Assembly: GCA_026982475.1 (NCBI GenBank)
Contig: JALSHB010000185.1
Location: forward strand, 1-46,444
Reading direction: 5' to 3'
Source of the DNA: Chromatiales bacterium
GTDB lineage: Bacteria; Pseudomonadota; Gammaproteobacteria; SZUA-152
DNA: 46,444 nucleotides
This document shows positions 1 to 11,330 of this stretch, piece by piece. Position 1 is the stretch's first letter, and each line of letters opens with the position of its first letter. Both the position numbers and the translations under genes were made by a program. The notes beneath the pieces were generated by a model. The model did no database searches and was not told the DNA's origin. It saw nothing but the letters and a program-made list of their open reading frames with translations.

Positions 1-3000
1 TTCGGTGGCGTCGGTGAGGGCCCGGGTGCTGCCGAGGCCGTCGTAGTGGTAGTAGTGTGTGGCGGCTCCTCGGTGCTGGCTGAGGAGGTCGTCGCCGTGG
101 GTGTAGGCGACGATGAGGGTGTTGGCGGCGTCGCGTTCTTCGAGGACCTGGGCGTAGGCGCGGTTGGGGTCGACGAGGTAGGCGGTGGTGGCGCCGTTGA
201 CGGTCTGGCTTTGGCGGATGCCGTCGGCGTCGTAGGTGTAGGTGATGGTGTCGCTGGCGGTGTGGACGCGGATGAGGCGGTTTTCGGCGTCGTAGGCGTA
301 GGTGGTGAGGCTGCCGTCGTCCTTGCCGAGGGTGTTGCCGTTGGCGTCGTAGCTGTAGGTGGTGCTGCCTTCGCTCTGCAGGCGGTCGTTGGCGTCGTAG
401 CTGTAGTTGACGGTGAGCAGGCTGTCGATGGTCTTGCTGAGGCGGTTGCCGACCCGGTCGTAGACGTAGTCGATCTGGCTGTTGCCGTGCAGGGGGTCGG
501 TGACGGTTTCGCGGGTGAGGCGGTAGAGGGCGTCGTAGGTGTAGTCGATGCGGCGGCCGTTTTCGTCGATGCGCAGGCGGTTGCCGGCGGCGCCGAGGGT
601 GTATTGGTAGCTGGTGATGAGGCTGCCGTCGCTTCTGCGGTTTTCGAGCCGGGTGAGGCGGTTGAGGGGGTCGTAGGTGTAGGTGGTGTTGGTGCCGTTG
701 GGGTGGCGGACGCTGGCGCGGTTGCCGTTGGCGTCGTAGCCGTAGGTGGTGGTGCCGCCGTCGCGGTCGGTGACGCTGGCGAGGCGGTTGAGGGCGTCAA
801 AGCCGTAGGTGGTGGCGCCGGCGGGGGTGGTGACGCGGGTGCGGTTGCCGGCGGCGTCGTAGGCGTAGGCGATGTAGCGGCCATCGGGGTAGTCGATGCG
901 GGTGAGGCGGTCTCGGTTGTCGTAGTGGTAGCGGGTGAGGCCGCGGCTGTCGGTGACGGTGTCGCGTTTGCCGGTGGCGGTGTAGGTGTAGCTGACGGTG
1001 CTGCCGTCGGGGTAGGTCTTGCGGATCAGGCGGTTGCGGCTGTCGTGGGCGTAGGTGGTGGTGTCGCCGTTGAAGTCGGTGTGGCTGAGCTTGTTGCCGT
1101 TGGCGTCCCAGGTGAAGGTTTCGCGCTGGCCCAGCGGGAGGGTGCGGCTGAGGACGTTGCCGGCGTTGTCGTAGGTCCAGCGTGTGGTGCGGCCTTCGGC
1201 GTCGGTCTGGGTGAGTTTGTTGCCGAGGGCGTCGTAGGTGTAGGTGGTCTGGCCGCCGAGGGCGTCGGTGACCTGGGTGAGGCGGCCGAGGGCGTCGTAG
1301 GCGTAGTGGGTGGTGACGCCGGCCTGATCGGTCTCGGCGGTCTTGCGGCCGAGGGCGTCGTAGGTGATGTTGATTTCGGTGCCGTCGGGGAAGACCGTTT
1401 TGATGCGGCGGTTGAGGGCGTCGAAGACGTATTGGGTGGTATTGCCGCGGGCGTCGGTGACGGCGGTCTGGTTGCCGTTGGCGTCATAGGTGTAGTCGGT
1501 CTGGTTGCCGAGGGGGTCGATGACGCGGGTGCGGCGGCCGGCGGCGTCGTATTGGTACTGGGTGGTGTTGCCGCGGGCGTCGGTGACGCTGATCAGGCGG
1601 CCGGCGGCGTCGTAGGCGTTGCTGAGCTGGCTGCCGTCGGCGTAGGTGGTCTGGATGAGGCGCTTGAGGGCGTCGTAGGCGTAGGTGGTGGTGTTGCCGG
1701 CCTGGTCGGTCTCGCTGACCTTGTTGCCTTCGGCGTCATAGCTGGCGCGGGTTTCGGTGCCGTCCGGGAAGCGGGTGCGGATGAGGTTGCCGCGCGCGTC
1801 GTAGTCGAATTCGGTGCGGTTGCCGCTCCTGTCGACCTGGGCGGAGACCTTGCCGAGGGCGTTGTATTCGGTGACGGCGGTGTGGCCTTCGCCGTCGGTC
1901 TCGGCGATGACGCGGTTGGCGGCGTCATAGGCCTTGCGGGTGGTGACGGTGACGGGGGTGCCGCCGTCGAGGCGGGTGCGGGTTTCTTCGAGGGGATTGC
2001 CGTTGGCGTCGTAGACGTAGCTGACGGTATTGCCGAGTGCGTCGGTTTCGGTCAGCTTGTTGCCGCTGGCGTCGTAGGTGAAGGTGGTGGCGGCGCCGCT
2101 CTCATCGACCATGCTGGTGATGTTGCCGCTGCCATCGAAGCCCATGCTGCGGCTGTTGCCGAGGGGGTCGGTGGTCTGGGTCAGGTTGCCGCGGCTGTCA
2201 TAGGTATTGGCGGTGACGTTGCCGTTCTTGTCGGTGGTCGTCAGCAGCTGGTTGCGGCTGTTGAAGCTGCGCGTGATGGTGTTGCCGAGGGGGTCGGTCT
2301 CGGTGAGCGGGTTGTCATTGACGTCGAAGGTCTTGGTGACGGTGTTGCCCAGCGGGTCGGTCTTCGACAGTTCGTTGCCGCGGCTGTCGTGGCTGTAGGT
2401 GGTGGTGTTGCCCTGGGCATCGGTCTGCGCCGTGACGTAGCCGTTGTCGTCATAGGCCACGATGGTGACGTTGCCGAGGCGGTCGCGGATCACTTCCTGG
2501 CGCCCCGCCACGTCGTGGGTCAGCTCGATGCGGTTGCCATCGGCGTCTTCGGTGGCGATGAGGCGGCCTTCATCGTTGTAGATGTTGCGCGCCGGGGTGA
2601 TGCCGCGGGGGTCGATGTATTCGGTGAGCGCATGATTGCGGTTGTAGCGGTGGCGGGTGACTTCACCCAGTTGGTTGGTGACGGACTCCAGGTCGCCATT
2701 GACGTTGTAGGCATAGTCGATGACATTGCCGTTGGGATCGGTGATGCGGGTGATGCGGCCCTGGCCGTCACGATCGAAGGTGACGCCCTTGCCCGAGGAG
2801 TGGGTGATGCCGCTGGACGAATAGGTCAGGGTATTGCCATTGGGGTCCGTGACGGTGCGGATACCGAAGTTCTGGTCCAGTTCGTAGACGTAGCCTTCGG
2901 CCGTGGTGAGGGTGTAGCGGCTTGGGTCATAGACGTCGAACAGGAAGGTTTCAAGCAATCTGCCGCCGTTGTACCAAAGCTGGCCAACACTTTGCGGCAC

Positions 3001-5538
3001 CAGGGTTGAGCTGGATCCCGCCTGGGCGGTAAACACGGGGGTGACATACTGCAAAGGAACCAGCAGCTGGCAACGAGGGCTGACCCCCATGTTGAATTTT
3101 TCCACCTTGCCACCCGGCAGGGTGACCGTCACCACATGGGCGCCAACCGGCTCGACACAGTAATTGGGGAAGAACCCGCCGCTGGCCGTCTGCGTCCAGT
3201 TGAGACCGAGCCTGATGTTTTCCTCTACCTTGACGTCCTGATAGTCGATGCTCCAGCCATAACCGAAGTCACTGCTGCCAAAGCGCTTGCGCGTGTCATA
3301 GGTGCGGTTGATGGTGATGGGAATGCCCGCTACGGGAATGGAAAGATCTTCCACGGTGAAGGAGAAATTGCCCACTTTCATGTCACCGCTGACCTGATAC
3401 TGGACAACCGTCGAACTCTGCAGGCCATTAACGTCGGTGACGATCAGGGCGACATCATAGATACCGTTTTCGAGCTGGGTGGGGTCGAAGACACCGAGCA
3501 CATCATCGATGACCGGCAAGGTGCCACGCGCAATCTCCGTGTATTGATTCTGGTCAGCGGGCGAAATCATCAGCTGGTACTGCGCGAGGTTCACGTCATT
3601 CGCCGTCCCGATGACATTCACTGGAGCCGTTATCTCGCTATCGGTCACCGGCGTCGAGATGATCGCCGTTGGCGCCGTGGTATCGGCGGGATCCCGCACG
3701 CTGAAATAGCTCTCCCGGTCAACCAGCTCCTCACTGTCGCTGGCCGTGGCGCGCAACTGATGCGAACCAATGGTGGTACCCGTCAGCGTGACCTGATTTG
3801 CTGCATCGAGCAGAACAGGGGCACCATCAACGAAGAGTTCAAGGCTCACCCCGCCGGCGCCACCGGTGCTGCTGACAGTAACCGTGGTCGTCCCACCGAC
3901 ATCAATGATTTGTGGTGATACGGAAATAAAGACATCAAGGGGAAGGCCTGAAGTGGCCGGGCCACTGGAGACCACCAAGTCCACGGCGCTGCCGGCGGCA
4001 ACGGAGGCGCCGGCGGCAGGATTCTGGCTGATCACATTGCCCGCCGGCACGGTGTCGCTGTTTTGGGTCGCGACGCCACCAACCGTCAGGCCGGCACCCG
4101 TGATGGCCGCTTCAGCGGCAGCTTGCGGCTGGCCAACGACACCCGGCACCAGCACCGGCGCAGGGCCGTCGGAGACCACCAGGTCCACAGCGCTTCCGGC
4201 GGCAACGGATATGCCCGCTGCCGGGTTCTGGCTGATGACCGTGCCGGCGGGCACAGTGTCGCTGTATTGATTGGTGACGCTACCAACTACCAATCCAGCG
4301 CCGGTGATGGCCGCTTCAGCCGCGGCCTGGGTCTGACCAACAACGCCCGGCACCAGCACCGGCGCGGGACCGTCGGAGACCACCAGGTCCACAGCGCTGC
4401 CGGCGGCAACGCTGGCGCCGGCCGCAGGACTCTGGCTGATCACATTGCCAGCAGGCACAGTGTCGCTGTTTTGGGTAGTAACGTTGCCAACAGTCAGGCT
4501 AGCGCCCGTGATGGCTGCTTCAGCCGCAGCCTGGGTCTGACCAACAACACCCGGCACCAAGACGGGTGCAGGACCATCGGAGACCACCAGATCCACAGCG
4601 CTGCCGACGGCAACGGATATGCCCGCTGCCGGGCTCTGGCTGATGACCGTGCCGGCGGGCACGGTGTCGCTGTATTGATTGGTGACGTTACCGACCGTCA
4701 GGCCGGCGCCGGTAATGGCCGCTTCAGCGGCAGCTTGCGGCTGGCCAACGACACCCGGCACCAGCACCGGCGCAGGGCCGTCGGAGACCACCAGGTCCAC
4801 GGCGCTGCCAGCGGCGACGGATACACCCGCAGCCGGGTTCTGGCTGATGACTGTGCCGGCGGGCACGGTGTCGCTGTATTGATTCGTGACGCTACCGACC
4901 GTCAGGCCGGCGCCAGTAATAGCCGCTTCAGCGGCAACTTGCGGTTGGCCAACAACATCCGGCACCGCAACAGGCGCCTCCGTGGCCGTAATGCTGACCG
5001 TGTCGGGCGTGCTATCTGCCTTACCATCATTGACAATCAGCTGGACAATGTAAGTGCCAGCCACATCGGCGACAAAGGACGGGCTGGCTGATTGGGCGTT
5101 TGCCAGCAGCGCTTCACTACCTGCCGGCCGGCTGAGCAGAGACCAGGAAAATGCCAGGGTGTCGCCGTCCGCATCGCTGGAGCCACTCCCGTCCAGACTT
5201 ACAAGATCACCCCTGAAAACACTCTGATCCAGGCCGGCATCGGCCACCGGCACTGTATTGGGGGTAACCGGAGCACAATTTGCCAGGGTGCATTGCGCAA
5301 CACATTGCCGCCCATCAGCGACCGTAATAAATCCGTCACCATCCGCATCCCGGGGATCCTCGGGGCTGCTGGCCGCCGTATTGCGAGCCGCAAAGATCTG
5401 GCCAATATCGATGCGATCAATATCGCCATCATCATCAACGTCGCAGATACGCGCCTGCGCCGACAGACTGCCAAAACTGCTTATCAGCAAGAGCAAAAAG
5501 GCAAAAACCCGGGGGGCTGTCAGATATTTTTTACTCAT
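1..5538 (-). CDS. Secreted dockerin-PKD-PASTA-RHS/YD-repeat protein (3' end outside window)
   Basis: One open frame of 1846 codons runs from ATG 5538 (AAGGAGAG ribosome site about 9 nt upstream) to the window edge; I checked the frame at several points and at position 1. Visible order: Sec signal peptide (about 1-29, ending LSAQA); two calcium-loop motifs, DVDDDGDIDRID and DADGDGFITVAD (about 32-75), as in dockerin type I, followed by clustered Cys; a PKD-like domain (about 95-187); five 68-residue PASTA-like repeats (about 189-527); Ig-like segments; an RHS-type start near M720 (GNFSFTVEDLSIPVAG); then about 900 residues of YD repeats (TYDA/GN). It stops at YYHYDGLGSTRALTDAT, the signature close to the end of RHS cores, so the variable C-terminal tip lies to the left. 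RHS proteins form shells around toxic or enzymatic tips. No PAAR or VgrG-like part is seen; the signal peptide suggests Sec export. Probably co-transcribed with the cohesin-like gene 137 bp upstream. Confidence 0.9.
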   Translation of the reverse strand, partial: MSKKYLTAPRVFAFLLLLISSFGSLSAQARICDVDDDGDIDRIDIGQIFAARNTAASSPEDPRDADGDGFITVADGRQCVAQCTLANCAPVTPNTVPVADAGLDQSVFRGDLVSLDGSGSSDADGDTLAFSWSLLSRPAGSEALLANAQSASPSFVADVAGTYIVQLIVNDGKADSTPDTVSITATEAPVAVPDVVGQPQVAAEAAITGAGLTVGSVTNQYSDTVPAGTVISQNPAAGVSVAAGSAVDLVVSDGPAPVLVPGVVGQPQAAAEAAITGAGLTVGNVTNQYSDTVPAGTVISQSPAAGISVAVGSAVDLVVSDGPAPVLVPGVVGQTQAAAEAAITGASLTVGNVTTQNSDTVPAGNVISQSPAAGASVAAGSAVDLVVSDGPAPVLVPGVVGQTQAAAEAAITGAGLVVGSVTNQYSDTVPAGTVISQNPAAGISVAAGSAVDLVVSDGPAPVLVPGVVGQPQAAAEAAITGAGLTVGGVATQNSDTVPAGNVISQNPAAGASVAAGSAVDLVVSSGPATSGLPLDVFISVSPQIIDVGGTTTVTVSSTGGAGGVSLELFVDGAPVLLDAANQVTLTGTTIGSHQLRATASDSEELVDRESYFSVRDPADTTAPTAIISTPVTDSEITAPVNVIGTANDVNLAQYQLMISPADQNQYTEIARGTLPVIDDVLGVFDPTQLENGIYDVALIVTDVNGLQSSTVVQYQVSGDMKVGNFSFTVEDLSIPVAGIPITINRTYDTRKRFGSSDFGYGWSIDYQDVKVEENIRLGLNWTQTASGGFFPNYCVEPVGAHVVTVTLPGGKVEKFNMGVSPRCQLLVPLQYVTPVFTAQAGSSSTLVPQSVGQLWYNGGRLLETFLFDVYDPSRYTLTTAEGYVYELDQNFGIRTVTDPNGNTLTYSSSGITHSSGKGVTFDRDGQGRITRITDPNGNVIDYAYNVNGDLESVTNQLGEVTRHRYNRNHALTEYIDPRGITPARNIYNDEGRLIATEDADGNRIELTHDVAGRQEVIRDRLGNVTIVAYDDNGYVTAQTDAQGNTTTYSHDSRGNELSKTDPLGNTVTKTFDVNDNPLTETDPLGNTITRSFNSRNQLLTTTDKNGNVTANTYDSRGNLTQTTDPLGNSRSMGFDGSGNITSMVDESGAATTFTYDASGNKLTETDALGNTVSYVYDANGNPLEETRTRLDGGTPVTVTTRKAYDAANRVIAETDGEGHTAVTEYNALGKVSAQVDRSGNRTEFDYDARGNLIRTRFPDGTETRASYDAEGNKVSETDQAGNTTTYAYDALKRLIQTTYADGSQLSNAYDAAGRLISVTDARGNTTQYQYDAAGRRTRVIDPLGNQTDYTYDANGNQTAVTDARGNTTQYVFDALNRRIKTVFPDGTEINITYDALGRKTAETDQAGVTTHYAYDALGRLTQVTDALGGQTTYTYDALGNKLTQTDAEGRTTRWTYDNAGNVLSRTLPLGQRETFTWDANGNKLSHTDFNGDTTTYAHDSRNRLIRKTYPDGSTVSYTYTATGKRDTVTDSRGLTRYHYDNRDRLTRIDYPDGRYIAYAYDAAGNRTRVTTPAGATTYGFDALNRLASVTDRDGGTTTYGYDANGNRASVRHPNGTNTTYTYDPLNRLTRLENRRSDGSLITSYQYTLGAAGNRLRIDENGRRIDYTYDALYRLTRETVTDPLHGNSQIDYVYDRVGNRLSKTIDSLLTVNYSYDANDRLQSEGSTTYSYDANGNTLGKDDGSLTTYAYDAENRLIRVHTASDTITYTYDADGIRQSQTVNGATTAYLVDPNRAYAQVLEERDAANTLIVAYTHGDDLLSQHRGAATHYYHYDGLGSTRALTDATE
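3955..4974 (-). repeat. Five 204-bp tandem repeats encoding PASTA-like domains
   Basis: The marker ggagaccacca recurs at 3967, 4171, 4375, 4579 and 4783, exactly 204 bp apart, inside the RHS gene. Each unit encodes 68 residues beginning VPGVVGQ and containing SDTVPAGTVISQNPAAG, which matches the PASTA pattern (VPDVVG...A...GL...S..VP.G.VI.Q.P..G). The units are very similar at DNA level, with the outermost ones more divergent, so copy number could change by recombination. PASTA domains are best known from Gram-positive Ser/Thr kinases and PBPs; here they more likely act as a stalk or adhesive spacer. Confidence 0.9.
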
Positions 5539-5675: not shown

Positions 5676-6326
5676 TTAAACCTGAATCCGTGGGTTCAGG
5701 TTAAATGAACTTTTACGGCGCATCAGCCCGGCAAGGCCTGCCGCCAGCAACAATATGCTGGCCGGCTCGGGCAACGCAACTGGCCCGGGAACGACGGTGA
5801 CATAACCACTTCCAGCGTTTACCGGCCCGACAGGCAAGCCAATTTCATCGGCCAGATAGCCACCGGCCATGCCCAGGATGTTTTCGCTGAAGCCCAGCGA
5901 ACTCATCCCGGCCGCCACCGTATCAAAGGTAAGAGAAAACAATAAAAAGTCGCTGACCCCATCCTGAAATGGACTCAGATCGAAAACAAATGCCAGCTCA
6001 GCAATATTTACCTGACCAGCGCTTGGTATCTGAACGTCTTGAAACGAACCCAGGGAGGCGCCCAAGCCAGAACCGAACGCCACGCTGTCCACTGACAACA
6101 CCGAGGAATCATATTCAACATTGAAGTCAAAGGCGCCAATTCTGCTCCCCGCCAGATCGCGCACATAGATATCGACCGTGGCCTGCTGGCCCAGCTCGAC
6201 GTTCTGGCCAGGCGGCTCAAAACTCAACATGACCGCGGAAGCCATGCCGGGACCAAGAACAAGGACAAGCCACGGGACCGAAGAAAGGAGCAAGCGCAAG
6301 GTTTTGGAACTCTGCTTTTTGGTCAC
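5676..6326 (-). CDS. Cohesin-like PEP-CTERM surface protein
   Basis: From GTG 6326 the protein has 216 residues. The N terminus (MTKKQSSKTLRLLL followed by a hydrophobic run ending GMASA) is a Sec signal peptide. The middle (VELGQQATVDIYVRDL, GAFDFNVEYDSSVLSVDSV, FLLFSLTFDT) has the beta-sandwich pattern of cohesin domains. The end (LPEPASILLLAAGLAGLMRRKSS) is a PEP-CTERM sorting signal, processed by exosortase in other bacteria; no exosortase gene is in the window. I chose GTG 6326 over ATG 6374 because the longer form puts 16 polar residues before the signal peptide and has no ribosome site, while GGGGTG precedes the GTG. The last eight residues (NLNPRIQV) are encoded by a dispersed palindrome. 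The next gene downstream carries a dockerin-like module, the usual partner of cohesins. Confidence 0.85.
   Translation of the reverse strand: MTKKQSSKTLRLLLSSVPWLVLVLGPGMASAVMLSFEPPGQNVELGQQATVDIYVRDLAGSRIGAFDFNVEYDSSVLSVDSVAFGSGLGASLGSFQDVQIPSAGQVNIAELAFVFDLSPFQDGVSDFLLFSLTFDTVAAGMSSLGFSENILGMAGGYLADEIGLPVGPVNAGSGYVTVVPGPVALPEPASILLLAAGLAGLMRRKSSFNLNPRIQV
5681..5700 (+). repeat. 20-nt hairpin repeat, copy 1
   Basis: CCTGAATCCGTGGGTTCAGG. It folds as an 8-bp stem (CCTGAATC/GGTTCAGG, one U-G pair) with a four-base loop, extended here by flanking TTTAAA-like arms. It overlaps the 3' end of the PEP-CTERM gene and may serve as its 3' hairpin. Five other copies are listed below. Confidence 0.8.
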
Positions 6327-6715
6327 TGTAAACACCCCGTTTTGATAGCTTTCCGCAGTCTGAAATCGACCCATGTAGAAACTACATCAAGTTGCGGTTA
6401 TGCACTTTTCATGCCTCGACGTGAATTCTGTTTTCACTCAACAGGTTGGCAGATATCGGGATAATATCTTTTCCCGTTATGTAAAAAATTCGACAGCCAC
6501 AGGCCACCACGGAACCCGTACGCCCAACCATAAAGTAGATGGATTTTTATACCATTGCGGCGTGATATCAACCAATAGCCACTAAAACAACCTTTTCATT
6601 TGAACTCCCCCTGGGTGTAAAAAATTTCGACGCCACCCGGCTTGCGGGCAGCGCCGGGGCCGCTTTCTGCTATCCTTGCGGCTCCGAACAAAAAGGCAAA
6701 GGCCCTGACTTTCCG
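6327..6715. other. Divergent intergenic region between the PEP-CTERM gene and ubiD
   Basis: About 390 bp that is clearly more AT-rich than the flanking genes. It holds a sigma-54-like element pointing left (6401-6415), a perfect 6-bp inverted repeat ATGTAG-aaa-CTACAT (6373-6387) near the predicted leftward transcript start, and GATAT/ATATC arms near 6452-6468. A small plus-strand ORF at 6400-6585 has no ribosome site or family resemblance. I see no convincing sigma-70 promoter for ubiD. Confidence 0.5.
6401..6415 (-). promoter_or_regulatory. Sigma-54 (-24/-12) promoter-like element for the PEP-CTERM/RHS pair
   Basis: Read on the minus strand the sequence is GGCATGAAAAGTGCA: GG, ten bases, GC, which is the exact spacing of RpoN promoters (consensus TGGCAC-N5-TTGCA), with about 4/6 and 4/5 matches to the two boxes. 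The start would fall near 6389, about 60 bp before the GTG. PEP-CTERM genes are commonly linked to PrsK/PrsR and sigma-54 control. No enhancer site was recognised. Confidence 0.4.
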
Positions 6716-8907: not shown

Positions 8908-9825
8908 ATGCACAGCCAGCGACGGACGGCACACAGGCAACACCCAGCACGCCCCTGGCAATGGGTCGCCGGGCTCTCCCTTTGCCTGCTGGCAGGCGCC
9001 GCGCAGGCCCACCCCAGCCACGACGATCGCCTCGTCCACCCCTTCATCGTCAGCGGCGTGATCCTCAACAGCGACAACGCCGGGCGCATCGAGGCCTTCG
9101 CCAGGATCCTCGGCGAGGCCACCGGCTACCCCTTGCAGGTGCGCTTCGTCGACAGCTATGACGCCCTCTCGGCCGCCCTGCGCAAGGACCCGGACGCCCT
9201 CGGCTGGACCGGCGGCGCGCCCTATGTCGAAGACCGCGTCAAGGATGGCCAGCAGCTGGTCGGCATTCCCCTGTTGCGCGGCCAGCCACGCTACCACAGC
9301 CTGATCATCAGCCGCCGCGAACGCCCCGAAAAGACCCTGCAAGCCTTCCGCGGCCAGGTCTTCGCCTATTCCGACGGACGCTCCAACTCCGGTTATGTGG
9401 CGCCGGCCTACCGTCTGAAACAGGCGGGTTTCGAGATCCAGAACTACTTCCGCCTGCTGTTGCACGCCGGCAACCACGAACGCAGCATCGAGGCCGTGGC
9501 CAGCGGCCTGGCCGATGTCGCCGCCGTCGACGAGTACGTATGGCACGAATACCTCAGGATGCACCCCCAGACCCGCCGGCAACTGCACGAGATCGAACGC
9601 CTCGGCCCCTTTCCCTTTACCCCCATCGTGGCCGGCAAGGCGGTGGATCAAGGGACCATCAAGCGCCTGCAACAAACCCTGACCACACTCGACCAAAGGC
9701 CCGCCGGCAAGGAACTGCTGGAGGATTTCGGCCTCGACGGCTTCACCGCCAGGGACGACGACTTCTACCGCCCCATCGAAGACATGATGCGCGCGCTGGG
9801 ATGGCCGCGGGACGGCCCGCGGTGA
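8908..9825 (+). CDS. PhnD-like periplasmic substrate-binding protein
   Basis: 305 residues with a signal peptide (positively charged start, hydrophobic run, cleavage after AGAAQA near residue 34). The body resembles PhnD/SsuA/transferrin-like binding proteins of phosphate, phosphonate or phosphite type: VDSYDALSAALRKDPDALGWTGGAPYVED, FAYSDGRSNSGYVAPAYRL and SGLADVAAVDEYVWHEY. No permease or ATPase gene accompanies it. The stop codon overlaps the start of the histidine kinase, so it most likely works as a ligand-sensing partner of that kinase. The ligand cannot be read from the sequence. Confidence 0.85.
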   Translation: MHSQRRTAHRQHPARPWQWVAGLSLCLLAGAAQAHPSHDDRLVHPFIVSGVILNSDNAGRIEAFARILGEATGYPLQVRFVDSYDALSAALRKDPDALGWTGGAPYVEDRVKDGQQLVGIPLLRGQPRYHSLIISRRERPEKTLQAFRGQVFAYSDGRSNSGYVAPAYRLKQAGFEIQNYFRLLLHAGNHERSIEAVASGLADVAAVDEYVWHEYLRMHPQTRRQLHEIERLGPFPFTPIVAGKAVDQGTIKRLQQTLTTLDQRPAGKELLEDFGLDGFTARDDDFYRPIEDMMRALGWPRDGPR

Positions 9826-11330
9826 TCGACTGGATACGCCAATCGTTTTATCGCCAGATCATGGCCCTGCTGATCATCGGCGGCTTCAGCATCGCCACCA
9901 TCTACGGCCTGTTCGATTACCAGAAGGAACGCAGCCAGCTGCGCCACATCCTCGAGGCCGACGCCCGCCACCTCGCCGACACCCTGAGCCTGGTGATCGC
10001 CGACGACGTCTTCTACGGCAAGCATTTTGCGTTATGGAAACGGCTCGATGCCGTCTACCGGCGCCACCACGCCGACAACAGCACCGGCCTGCTGTACCAC
10101 ATCCGGGAAATCTCCGTGACCGACAACGACGGCCTGATCGTCGGTCACAGCCACCCGCGTGAACATCCCCTGTTGAAACCCGATCCCCACTCGGCCTTCG
10201 ACCGCGCGCAGCAGGCCGGCAACGGTCAGCGCCTCCTCTGGCGGCAACAACCCACCGTGATGCTGATGGTGCGCTATCCGATCCACTTCAGCGGCAAGAA
10301 GGTAGGCGACATCACCCTCGACCTCGACCCCCAGCCCATGCTCGCCCTGCAACACCAGCTGGCCGTCAACTACCTGCTCTACGAACTCGTGTTCCTGGGC
10401 ATCCTGCTGGTCTCGGCGCGCTTCCTGGCCCGCTGGCTGGCCCGCCCGCTGGAACAGGCCAGCAAGGTGCTGCCCCGGCTCGGCAGCGGCGAGGTGCGAC
10501 TACCCGGCTTGCAGACGCGCCAGGACGAGCTGAAACACCTCGCCTGCGCCATCGAGGCGGCCGACCAGCGCATCCATGCCGCGCAGCTCGCCGCCCAGGA
10601 TCGCGAGAGCGAGCTGGAGTCACGGGTCCGCGAACGCACCGAGGAAATCGAGTCCTTCACCTATTCCGTCTCCCACGACCTGCGCTCCCCCCTGCGCGCC
10701 CTGGACGGCTTCTCCCAGGCCCTGCAGGAAGACTGCGCCGACACCCTGAGCGACGACGGCAGACAGCACCTGCAACGGATACGCGGCGCGGCGGTGCGCA
10801 TGGGGCACATCATCGACGACCTGCTCATGCTGTCGCGCGTAAACCGCCAGAGCCTGGTTTTCTCCACCGTGGACCTGTCGGCGCTGGCCCGCGACATCAT
10901 CGATGAATTGCGCGAGCAATCGCCACAACGGCAGGTCGATGTGCGCATTGCCGCGCACATGCGGGCCGAAGGCGACGAGCGCCTGCTGCGCATCGCCCTC
11001 GGCAATCTCCTCGCCAACGCCTGGAAATACACCCGCAAGACCGCCCATGCCAGGATAGACTTCGACAGCCGCCTGCAAGATGGCGCGCGGATCTATCGGC
11101 TGCACGACAATGGAACCGGATTCGACATGAAATACGTTGATAAACTGTTCGAGGCCTTTCAACGCCTGCATGGCTGGGACGAATACGAAGGCACCGGCAT
11201 CGGACTGGCCATCGTGCAGCGCATCATCCATCGCCACCATGGCGAGGTATGGGCGGAAGGCGAACCCGGGCGGGGCGCCACCTTTTATTTTCGGCTCGGA
11301 AACGGCGACAATACGGCAACGGCTCAATGA
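9822..11330 (+). CDS. Membrane sensor histidine kinase coupled to the PhnD-like protein
   Basis: 502 residues from GTG 9822, which overlaps the upstream stop as GTGA; ATG 9801 is an alternative start. Two membrane segments (about 11-30 and 180-200) flank a periplasmic sensor domain; then HAMP-like linker, coiled coil ending at RERTEEIESF, a HisKA domain with SHDLRSPLRAL (phosphoacceptor H285) and an HATPase domain with NLLANAWKYT (N box), DNGTGFDM (G1) and GTGIGLAIV (G2). The catalytic half resembles phytochrome-like kinases. No response regulator gene is next to it, so the output partner is elsewhere. Translational coupling supports joint function with the binding protein. Confidence 0.9.
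   Translation: MIDWIRQSFYRQIMALLIIGGFSIATIYGLFDYQKERSQLRHILEADARHLADTLSLVIADDVFYGKHFALWKRLDAVYRRHHADNSTGLLYHIREISVTDNDGLIVGHSHPREHPLLKPDPHSAFDRAQQAGNGQRLLWRQQPTVMLMVRYPIHFSGKKVGDITLDLDPQPMLALQHQLAVNYLLYELVFLGILLVSARFLARWLARPLEQASKVLPRLGSGEVRLPGLQTRQDELKHLACAIEAADQRIHAAQLAAQDRESELESRVRERTEEIESFTYSVSHDLRSPLRALDGFSQALQEDCADTLSDDGRQHLQRIRGAAVRMGHIIDDLLMLSRVNRQSLVFSTVDLSALARDIIDELREQSPQRQVDVRIAAHMRAEGDERLLRIALGNLLANAWKYTRKTAHARIDFDSRLQDGARIYRLHDNGTGFDMKYVDKLFEAFQRLHGWDEYEGTGIGLAIVQRIIHRHHGEVWAEGEPGRGATFYFRLGNGDNTATAQ

What the first reader, a model, noticed from the sequence alone, without database searches (positions are those of the whole stretch)
1..5538. RHS cage with a Sec signal peptide whose variable tip lies just off the left edge
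The core ends in the HYDGLGSTRALTDAT signature typical of the last part of RHS cores, so the tip, and any immunity gene, start within roughly the next few hundred bases. The protein has a Sec signal and no PAAR domain, so export is not via type VI secretion in the usual way.
Basis: partly seen in the sequence, partly recalled or inferred. Interest (0 to 1): 0.7.

Follow-up and report, generated by a model that had tools for sequence, protein, structure and literature searches.

The report
Surface RHS toxin with dockerin tether
The sequence encodes most of a large secreted RHS protein whose missing end, found on another contig of the same genome, carries a foreign-looking toxin-like tip and a likely immunity gene; the protein also carries a dockerin-like plug next to a gene for a matching cohesin-type socket with a surface-sorting tail, which suggests an undescribed way of holding such toxins on the cell.

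Summary
Confirmed and completed. The ORF at 5538..1 (minus) is a Sec-exported RHS protein that runs off a contig end. The continuation is on contig C139, which shares an exact 127-bp end overlap with the window; no other contig does. There the RHS core ends at NIDPSGE, about 260 bp past the edge. A 156-residue tip follows (GC 42% against 64% for the core), then a 293-codon candidate immunity gene 14 bp downstream (GC 37%), an IS element and a decayed RHS core fragment. A relative in Candidatus Thiodiazotropha has the same core (74-76% identical), a different tip, a different downstream gene and a different N-terminus. PAAR is absent and the genome has no T6SS sheath gene (VipB), but it has T2SS GspD and an exosortase.

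The gene directly upstream encodes a cohesin domain with a PEP-CTERM sorting tail. This dockerin/cohesin pair is an old two-gene unit, present in all 14 of 96 searched genomes that have the dockerin. Best reading: an RHS polymorphic toxin held on the producer's surface by an exosortase-sorted cohesin. Binding, toxicity and tip activity are inferred. New variant of a known kind.

The parts
1..5538 (-). RHS protein, first 1846 codons; continues on contig C139 (L009:11154-12005, minus)
5452..5538 (-). Sec-type signal peptide, cleavage likely after SAQA (aa 1-29)
   Evidence: sequence read directly; no predictor run
5269..5445 (-). dockerin-like module (aa 32-90): two Ca-loop motifs DVDDDGDIDRID and DADGDGFITVAD, flanked by conserved cysteines
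   Evidence: Dockerin_1 below cut-off; 9 of 11 family members match
4987..5238 (-). PKD domain (aa 101-184)
3967..4971 (-). five PASTA domains; a 204-bp tandem array with a 408-bp super-unit
2359..3420 (-). conserved entry module of the RHS core (contains MKVGNFSFTVEDLSIP...FGYGWS)
202..2769 (-). RHS/YD repeats
1..127 (-). exact end overlap with contig C139:15879-16005; contains the HYDGLGSTRALTDAT motif
5676..6374 (-). upstream gene: signal peptide, cohesin domain, C-terminal PEP-CTERM sorting signal

Best explanation
The locus encodes an RHS-type polymorphic toxin of the Sec-exported, non-T6SS kind. Steps shown by sequence: signal peptide; dockerin-PKD-PASTA stalk; RHS core closed by the Rhs-associated core and a DPSG boundary; a low-GC, unrelated tip; and an adjacent low-GC ORF placed where an immunity gene would be. 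Steps inferred: the protein crosses the inner membrane by Sec and the outer membrane probably by the T2SS present in the genome. The upstream cohesin protein is processed by exosortase and held at the surface, and the dockerin plugs into that cohesin, so the toxin cage is displayed on the producer. The tip is cut at DPSG and released into a neighbouring cell on contact, while the downstream protein protects siblings. The tip may be a metal-dependent nuclease of the HNH type (HH...N...H pattern), a weak inference. Confidence is about 0.93 for the toxin-tip-immunity reading alone and about 0.6 for the cohesin tether.
For: Core, tip and immunity layout. Join of the two contigs: exact 127-bp overlap found nowhere else in the genome, equal identity to L089 on both sides of the join (74% and 76%), and the S8 protease plus 174-aa gene that lie beside the tip on C139 lie beside the cohesin-dockerin pair in same-genus G004. 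Foreign tip: GC 64 to 42 to 37%. Tip polymorphism: L089 matches up to NIDP/NTDP and then not at all. Tether: cohesin above the Pfam cut-off (31.3 against 24.1 bits) and PEP-CTERM; the cohesin family profile finds four scaffoldin cohesins of the PDB first; the cohesin/dockerin pair is adjacent in 14 of 14 dockerin genomes; G000 has just one of each; exosortase present. Export: GspD present, VipB absent.
Against: The dockerin stays below the Pfam cut-off (15.1 against 22.9 bits) and its profile finds calmodulins best in the PDB, so only a double Ca-loop is certain. Binding to the cohesin is untested. Close RHS relatives (L089, G013) lack the dockerin and carry a VWA-like N-terminus. In the genera around, the pair also occurs without RHS, so it did not arise for toxin display. 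The tip has no detectable homologue, so toxicity itself is inferred. Structure models of tip and cohesin failed (mean pLDDT 42).
Confidence: 0.6

Rival explanations
1. Same RHS toxin, but the dockerin-like module does not bind the cohesin: it is a Ca-stabilised spacer, the PASTA domains (peptidoglycan) or the RHS shell hold the protein, and the cohesin-PEP-CTERM protein has its own role.
For: Dockerin below the Pfam cut-off, with extra invariant cysteines; relatives L089 and G013 use other N-termini behind non-cohesin upstream genes; PASTA domains are strong.
Against: The pair is adjacent in every dockerin-bearing genome found, in several gene orders and with otherwise unrelated dockerin proteins, which is what a binding pair would show.
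Confidence: 0.28
2. The contig join is false: C139's tip belongs to another RHS copy sharing the 127-bp end, and the window gene has a different, unassembled tip.
For: A contig break at a shared 127-mer implies a branch in the assembly graph, so another edge, possibly an alternative tip, may exist. C139 also holds a second RHS fragment.
Against: No other contig carries the 127-mer; identity to L089 is the same on both sides; the S8-protease neighbourhood is shared with G004.
Confidence: 0.08
3. The protein is an adhesin or a decayed RHS element and not a working antibacterial toxin.
For: Adhesion-type stalk; IS element and decayed core fragment next door; no family for tip or ORF.
Against: Open frame of 1846 codons plus 283 on C139 without a stop; the tip and second gene form a compact low-GC cassette exactly at the DPSG boundary.
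Confidence: 0.12

Closest known systems
RHS protein of Candidatus Thiodiazotropha sp. (ex Epidulcina cf. delphinae), JAHXHS010000023.1 (L089)
   Same: RHS core 74-76% identical over about 1400 residues; DPSG boundary; tip followed at once by a small ORF; a gene ending in a PEP-CTERM-like tail just upstream
   Different: VWA/PKD/Ig N-terminus instead of dockerin-PKD-PASTA; unrelated tip and downstream ORF; the upstream gene has no Pfam cohesin
Signal-peptide (T2SS class) RHS polymorphic toxins, Zhang et al. 2012 (PMC3482391)
   Same: signal peptide, RHS filament, C-terminal tip, immunity ORF; N-terminal domains proposed there to anchor the toxin to the producer
   Different: that survey does not mention dockerin, cohesin, PEP-CTERM or PASTA in the text held
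Bacterial teneurin-like proteins (PMC13018210)
   Same: surface-exposed YD-shell toxins with variable adhesion modules and immunity genes
   Different: the window protein lacks the teneurin TTR, FN-plug and NHL domains; TEN_YD-shell only 15 bits against a cut-off of 50
Non-cellulosomal cohesin/dockerin modules (Peer et al. 2009, not held; cited in PMC6030884)
   Same: cohesin and dockerin-like modules outside cellulosomes
   Different: here the dockerin sits on an RHS toxin and the cohesin has a PEP-CTERM tail; no paper in the library joins these terms
Dockerin_1-bearing RHS protein of a Pirellulaceae MAG (L120)
   Same: N-terminal Pfam dockerin on an RHS protein (31.7 bits)
   Different: different phylum and dockerin; no cohesin neighbour seen in the fetched stretch

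Membership tests
RHS polymorphic toxin | RHS/YD repeats | tested here: met
   27 stretches, E 7e-149
RHS polymorphic toxin | Rhs-associated core with DPxG boundary | tested here: met
   TIGR03696, 70.4 against 32.5 bits, ending at NIDPSGE on C139
RHS polymorphic toxin | variable C-terminal tip | tested here: met
   core shared with L089, tips unrelated; GC drop from 64 to 42%
RHS polymorphic toxin | adjacent immunity gene | tested here: inconclusive
   293-codon ORF 14 bp downstream, GC 37%, no known family; neutralisation not testable
RHS polymorphic toxin | toxic activity of the tip | not testable with these tools
   no family in Pfam, NCBIfam, PHROGs or PADLOC
T6SS Rhs effector | PAAR or other T6SS N-terminus, and a T6SS in the genome | tested here: not met
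   no PAAR; VipB absent from a genome rated 100% complete
Cohesin-dockerin pair | cohesin domain | tested here: met
   Pfam 31.3 against 24.1 bits; family profile finds scaffoldins first in the PDB
Cohesin-dockerin pair | type I dockerin domain | tested here: inconclusive
   two Ca-loops; Dockerin_1 in 9 of 11 members but best E 0.003, window copy 15.1 against 22.9 bits
Cohesin-dockerin pair | Ca-dependent binding | not testable with these tools
   only conserved adjacency, 14 of 14 genomes
PEP-CTERM/exosortase substrate (cohesin gene) | signal peptide, PEP-CTERM tail and an exosortase in the genome | tested here: met
   PF07589 22.0 against 20.7 bits; TIGR02595 18.8 against 16; exosortase 248.8 bits; signal peptide read by eye
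HNH/EndoVII nuclease toxin (tip) | match to an HNH toxin family | tested here: not met
   no family match; only an HH...N...H spacing resemblance
Teneurin-like protein | TTR, FN-plug, NHL and YD-shell | tested here: not met

The most novel reading that the evidence does not exclude
A polymorphic toxin is displayed by a cellulosome-type plug and socket: the dockerin of the RHS protein locks into a cohesin that exosortase has fixed to the cell surface, so that toxins with different tips, or other dockerin proteins, can be exchanged on one anchor.
Probability: 0.5. Interest if true: 0.7.

Novelty: new variant of a known kind. Interest (0 to 1): 0.5.

Why it matters
How Sec-exported RHS toxins without a T6SS stay on Gram-negative producers until contact is poorly known. 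A cohesin-dockerin pair with an exosortase signal gives a concrete hypothesis that can be tested in vitro, and would join three systems studied separately: polymorphic toxins, cohesin/dockerin modules and PEP-CTERM sorting. The tip and its neighbour are also a candidate toxin-immunity pair without known relatives.

Tried and rejected
Contig C101 as a source of the tip: its RHS fragment has no end overlap with the window. Tip homologues: none in 95 relatives, 368 class genomes, plasmids at E 0.01, or viral contigs; the weak phylum-wide and plasmid hits are in unrelated genes and were taken as chance. Structures of tip and cohesin: single-sequence models, mean pLDDT 42, not used for a fold search. 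Dockerin profile against the PDB: swamped by calmodulins. T6SS delivery: rejected. Teneurin and TcdB/SpvB membership: no matching domains. Whether G004 and G009 dockerins also run into an RHS core: undecided, both contigs end inside or just after the PASTA start. Long plus-strand ORFs opposite the RHS gene are taken as shadow ORFs.

Full report
Observation. The minus-strand ORF 5538..1 is open at the left end and the window is the complete contig C185 of a 3.0-Mb, 224-contig genome. Pfam finds 27 RHS repeats, five PASTA domains and one PKD domain; no PAAR. The signal peptide MSKKYLTAPRVFAFLLLLISSFGSLSAQA is plain by eye. The HYDGLGSTRALTDAT motif is the last sequence before the edge.

The missing end. 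The first 127 bases of the window occur once more in the genome, exactly, at the right end of contig C139. An exact end overlap of this length is what a de Bruijn assembler leaves at a branch (inference). Read there in the same frame, the protein continues for 241 residues: the Rhs-associated core (TIGR03696) ends at NPISNIDPSGE about 260 bp past the edge, and a 156-residue tip follows. The two halves were studied apart and not joined. GC falls from 64% in the core to 42% in the tip and 37% in the next ORF, which starts 14 bp after the tip's stop and has 293 codons. Neither has a known family. Beyond them lies an IS element with a transposase read as IS3-type and imperfect terminal repeats CGGACACCyCAGTTAAG, and then a decayed RHS core fragment 53% identical to the window core.

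Is the join real? Three lines say yes. Only C139 carries the overlap. A Candidatus Thiodiazotropha relative (L089) is 74% identical to the window part of the core and 76% to the C139 part. In G004, of the same genus, an S8 protease and a 174-aa gene lie directly before the cohesin-dockerin pair, and their counterparts lie on C139 beside the RHS tip. A branch in the assembly remains unexplained and could hide an alternative tip.

Tip exchange. L089 shares the core up to DPSG and nothing after it; its tip is followed at once by a different ORF. Its N-terminus is also unrelated: the match to the window starts at residue 532, after the PASTA array. The RHS core thus appears with different modules at both ends. 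This is usual for polymorphic toxins at the tip, and here also holds for the anchor end.

The anchor end. Residues 32-90 hold two calcium-loop motifs in dockerin spacing. Related modules occur in 14 of 96 genomes searched, window genome included. Dockerin_1 matches 9 of 11 of them, all under the cut-off. The gene upstream of the RHS gene has a Pfam cohesin above cut-off and a PEP-CTERM tail, and a profile of ten such proteins finds the scaffoldin cohesins 5lxv, 4ums, 2vn5 and 1g1k as the first four hits in the PDB. In 11 of the 14 dockerin genomes a cohesin is detected on the same contig, ten within 540 bp and one at 2.6 kb; in the other three the adjacent PEP-CTERM gene has a weaker cohesin match (E 1.6e-4 to 7e-3). 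The partner dockerin proteins are otherwise diverse and the gene order varies. G000 has exactly one of each. This is strong evidence for a functional pair, not for binding as such.

Export. The genome has an exosortase and GspD of type II secretion, and no VipB. Sec plus T2SS export is the route assigned to signal-peptide RHS toxins by Zhang et al. 2012 (PMC3482391), who also proposed that N-terminal domains of such toxins anchor them to the producer. Their text does not mention dockerin, cohesin, PEP-CTERM or PASTA. PEP-CTERM/EpsH as a sortase-like surface system is from Haft et al. 2006 (PMC1569441).

Mechanism, shown and inferred. Shown: architecture, boundary, composition, neighbours, conservation of the pair. 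Inferred: export route, cohesin-dockerin binding, surface display, cleavage at DPSG, toxicity, neutralisation. The tip pattern EEVHHII...N...AH resembles HNH nuclease toxins in layout only; no family was met.

Novelty. The toxin is a new member of the RHS class. The dockerin tether beside an exosortase-sorted cohesin is, within the library searched, undescribed for polymorphic toxins, so 'new variant of a known kind'. A Pirellulaceae RHS protein with a clear Dockerin_1 (L120) hints that dockerin-RHS fusions arose more than once.

Noticed in passing
L086:2010-7379 (G002, same genus): A 1789-aa protein with an N-terminal PASTA domain followed by the teneurin set TTR, FN-plug, NHL and YD-shell: a bacterial teneurin-like protein in the window's genus.
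   Followed up: partly
L009:8606-8971 and about 8970-10190: Decayed RHS core fragment without a tip, separated from the toxin-immunity cassette by an IS element with a transposase read as IS3-type.
   Followed up: partly
window 3967-4966: PASTA array is a 204-bp tandem repeat with a 408-bp super-unit; relatives' contigs G004:C46 and G009:C44 end at or near it, so copy number may vary.
   Followed up: no
L089:3978-4934, L091:5114-5821, L114:1100-1714: Other RHS genes of this type also have a gene ending in a PEP-CTERM-like tail directly upstream, without a Pfam cohesin in the two scanned (L089, L091), so an exosortase-sorted partner may be a wider theme.
   Followed up: partly
L009:5684-8407: S8-type protease with a surface-type N-terminus beside the toxin locus; counterpart beside the cohesin-dockerin pair in G004.
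   Followed up: partly
window 8908-11330: A periplasmic binding protein-like ORF followed by a sensor histidine kinase-like ORF, judged from the sequence only.
   Followed up: no
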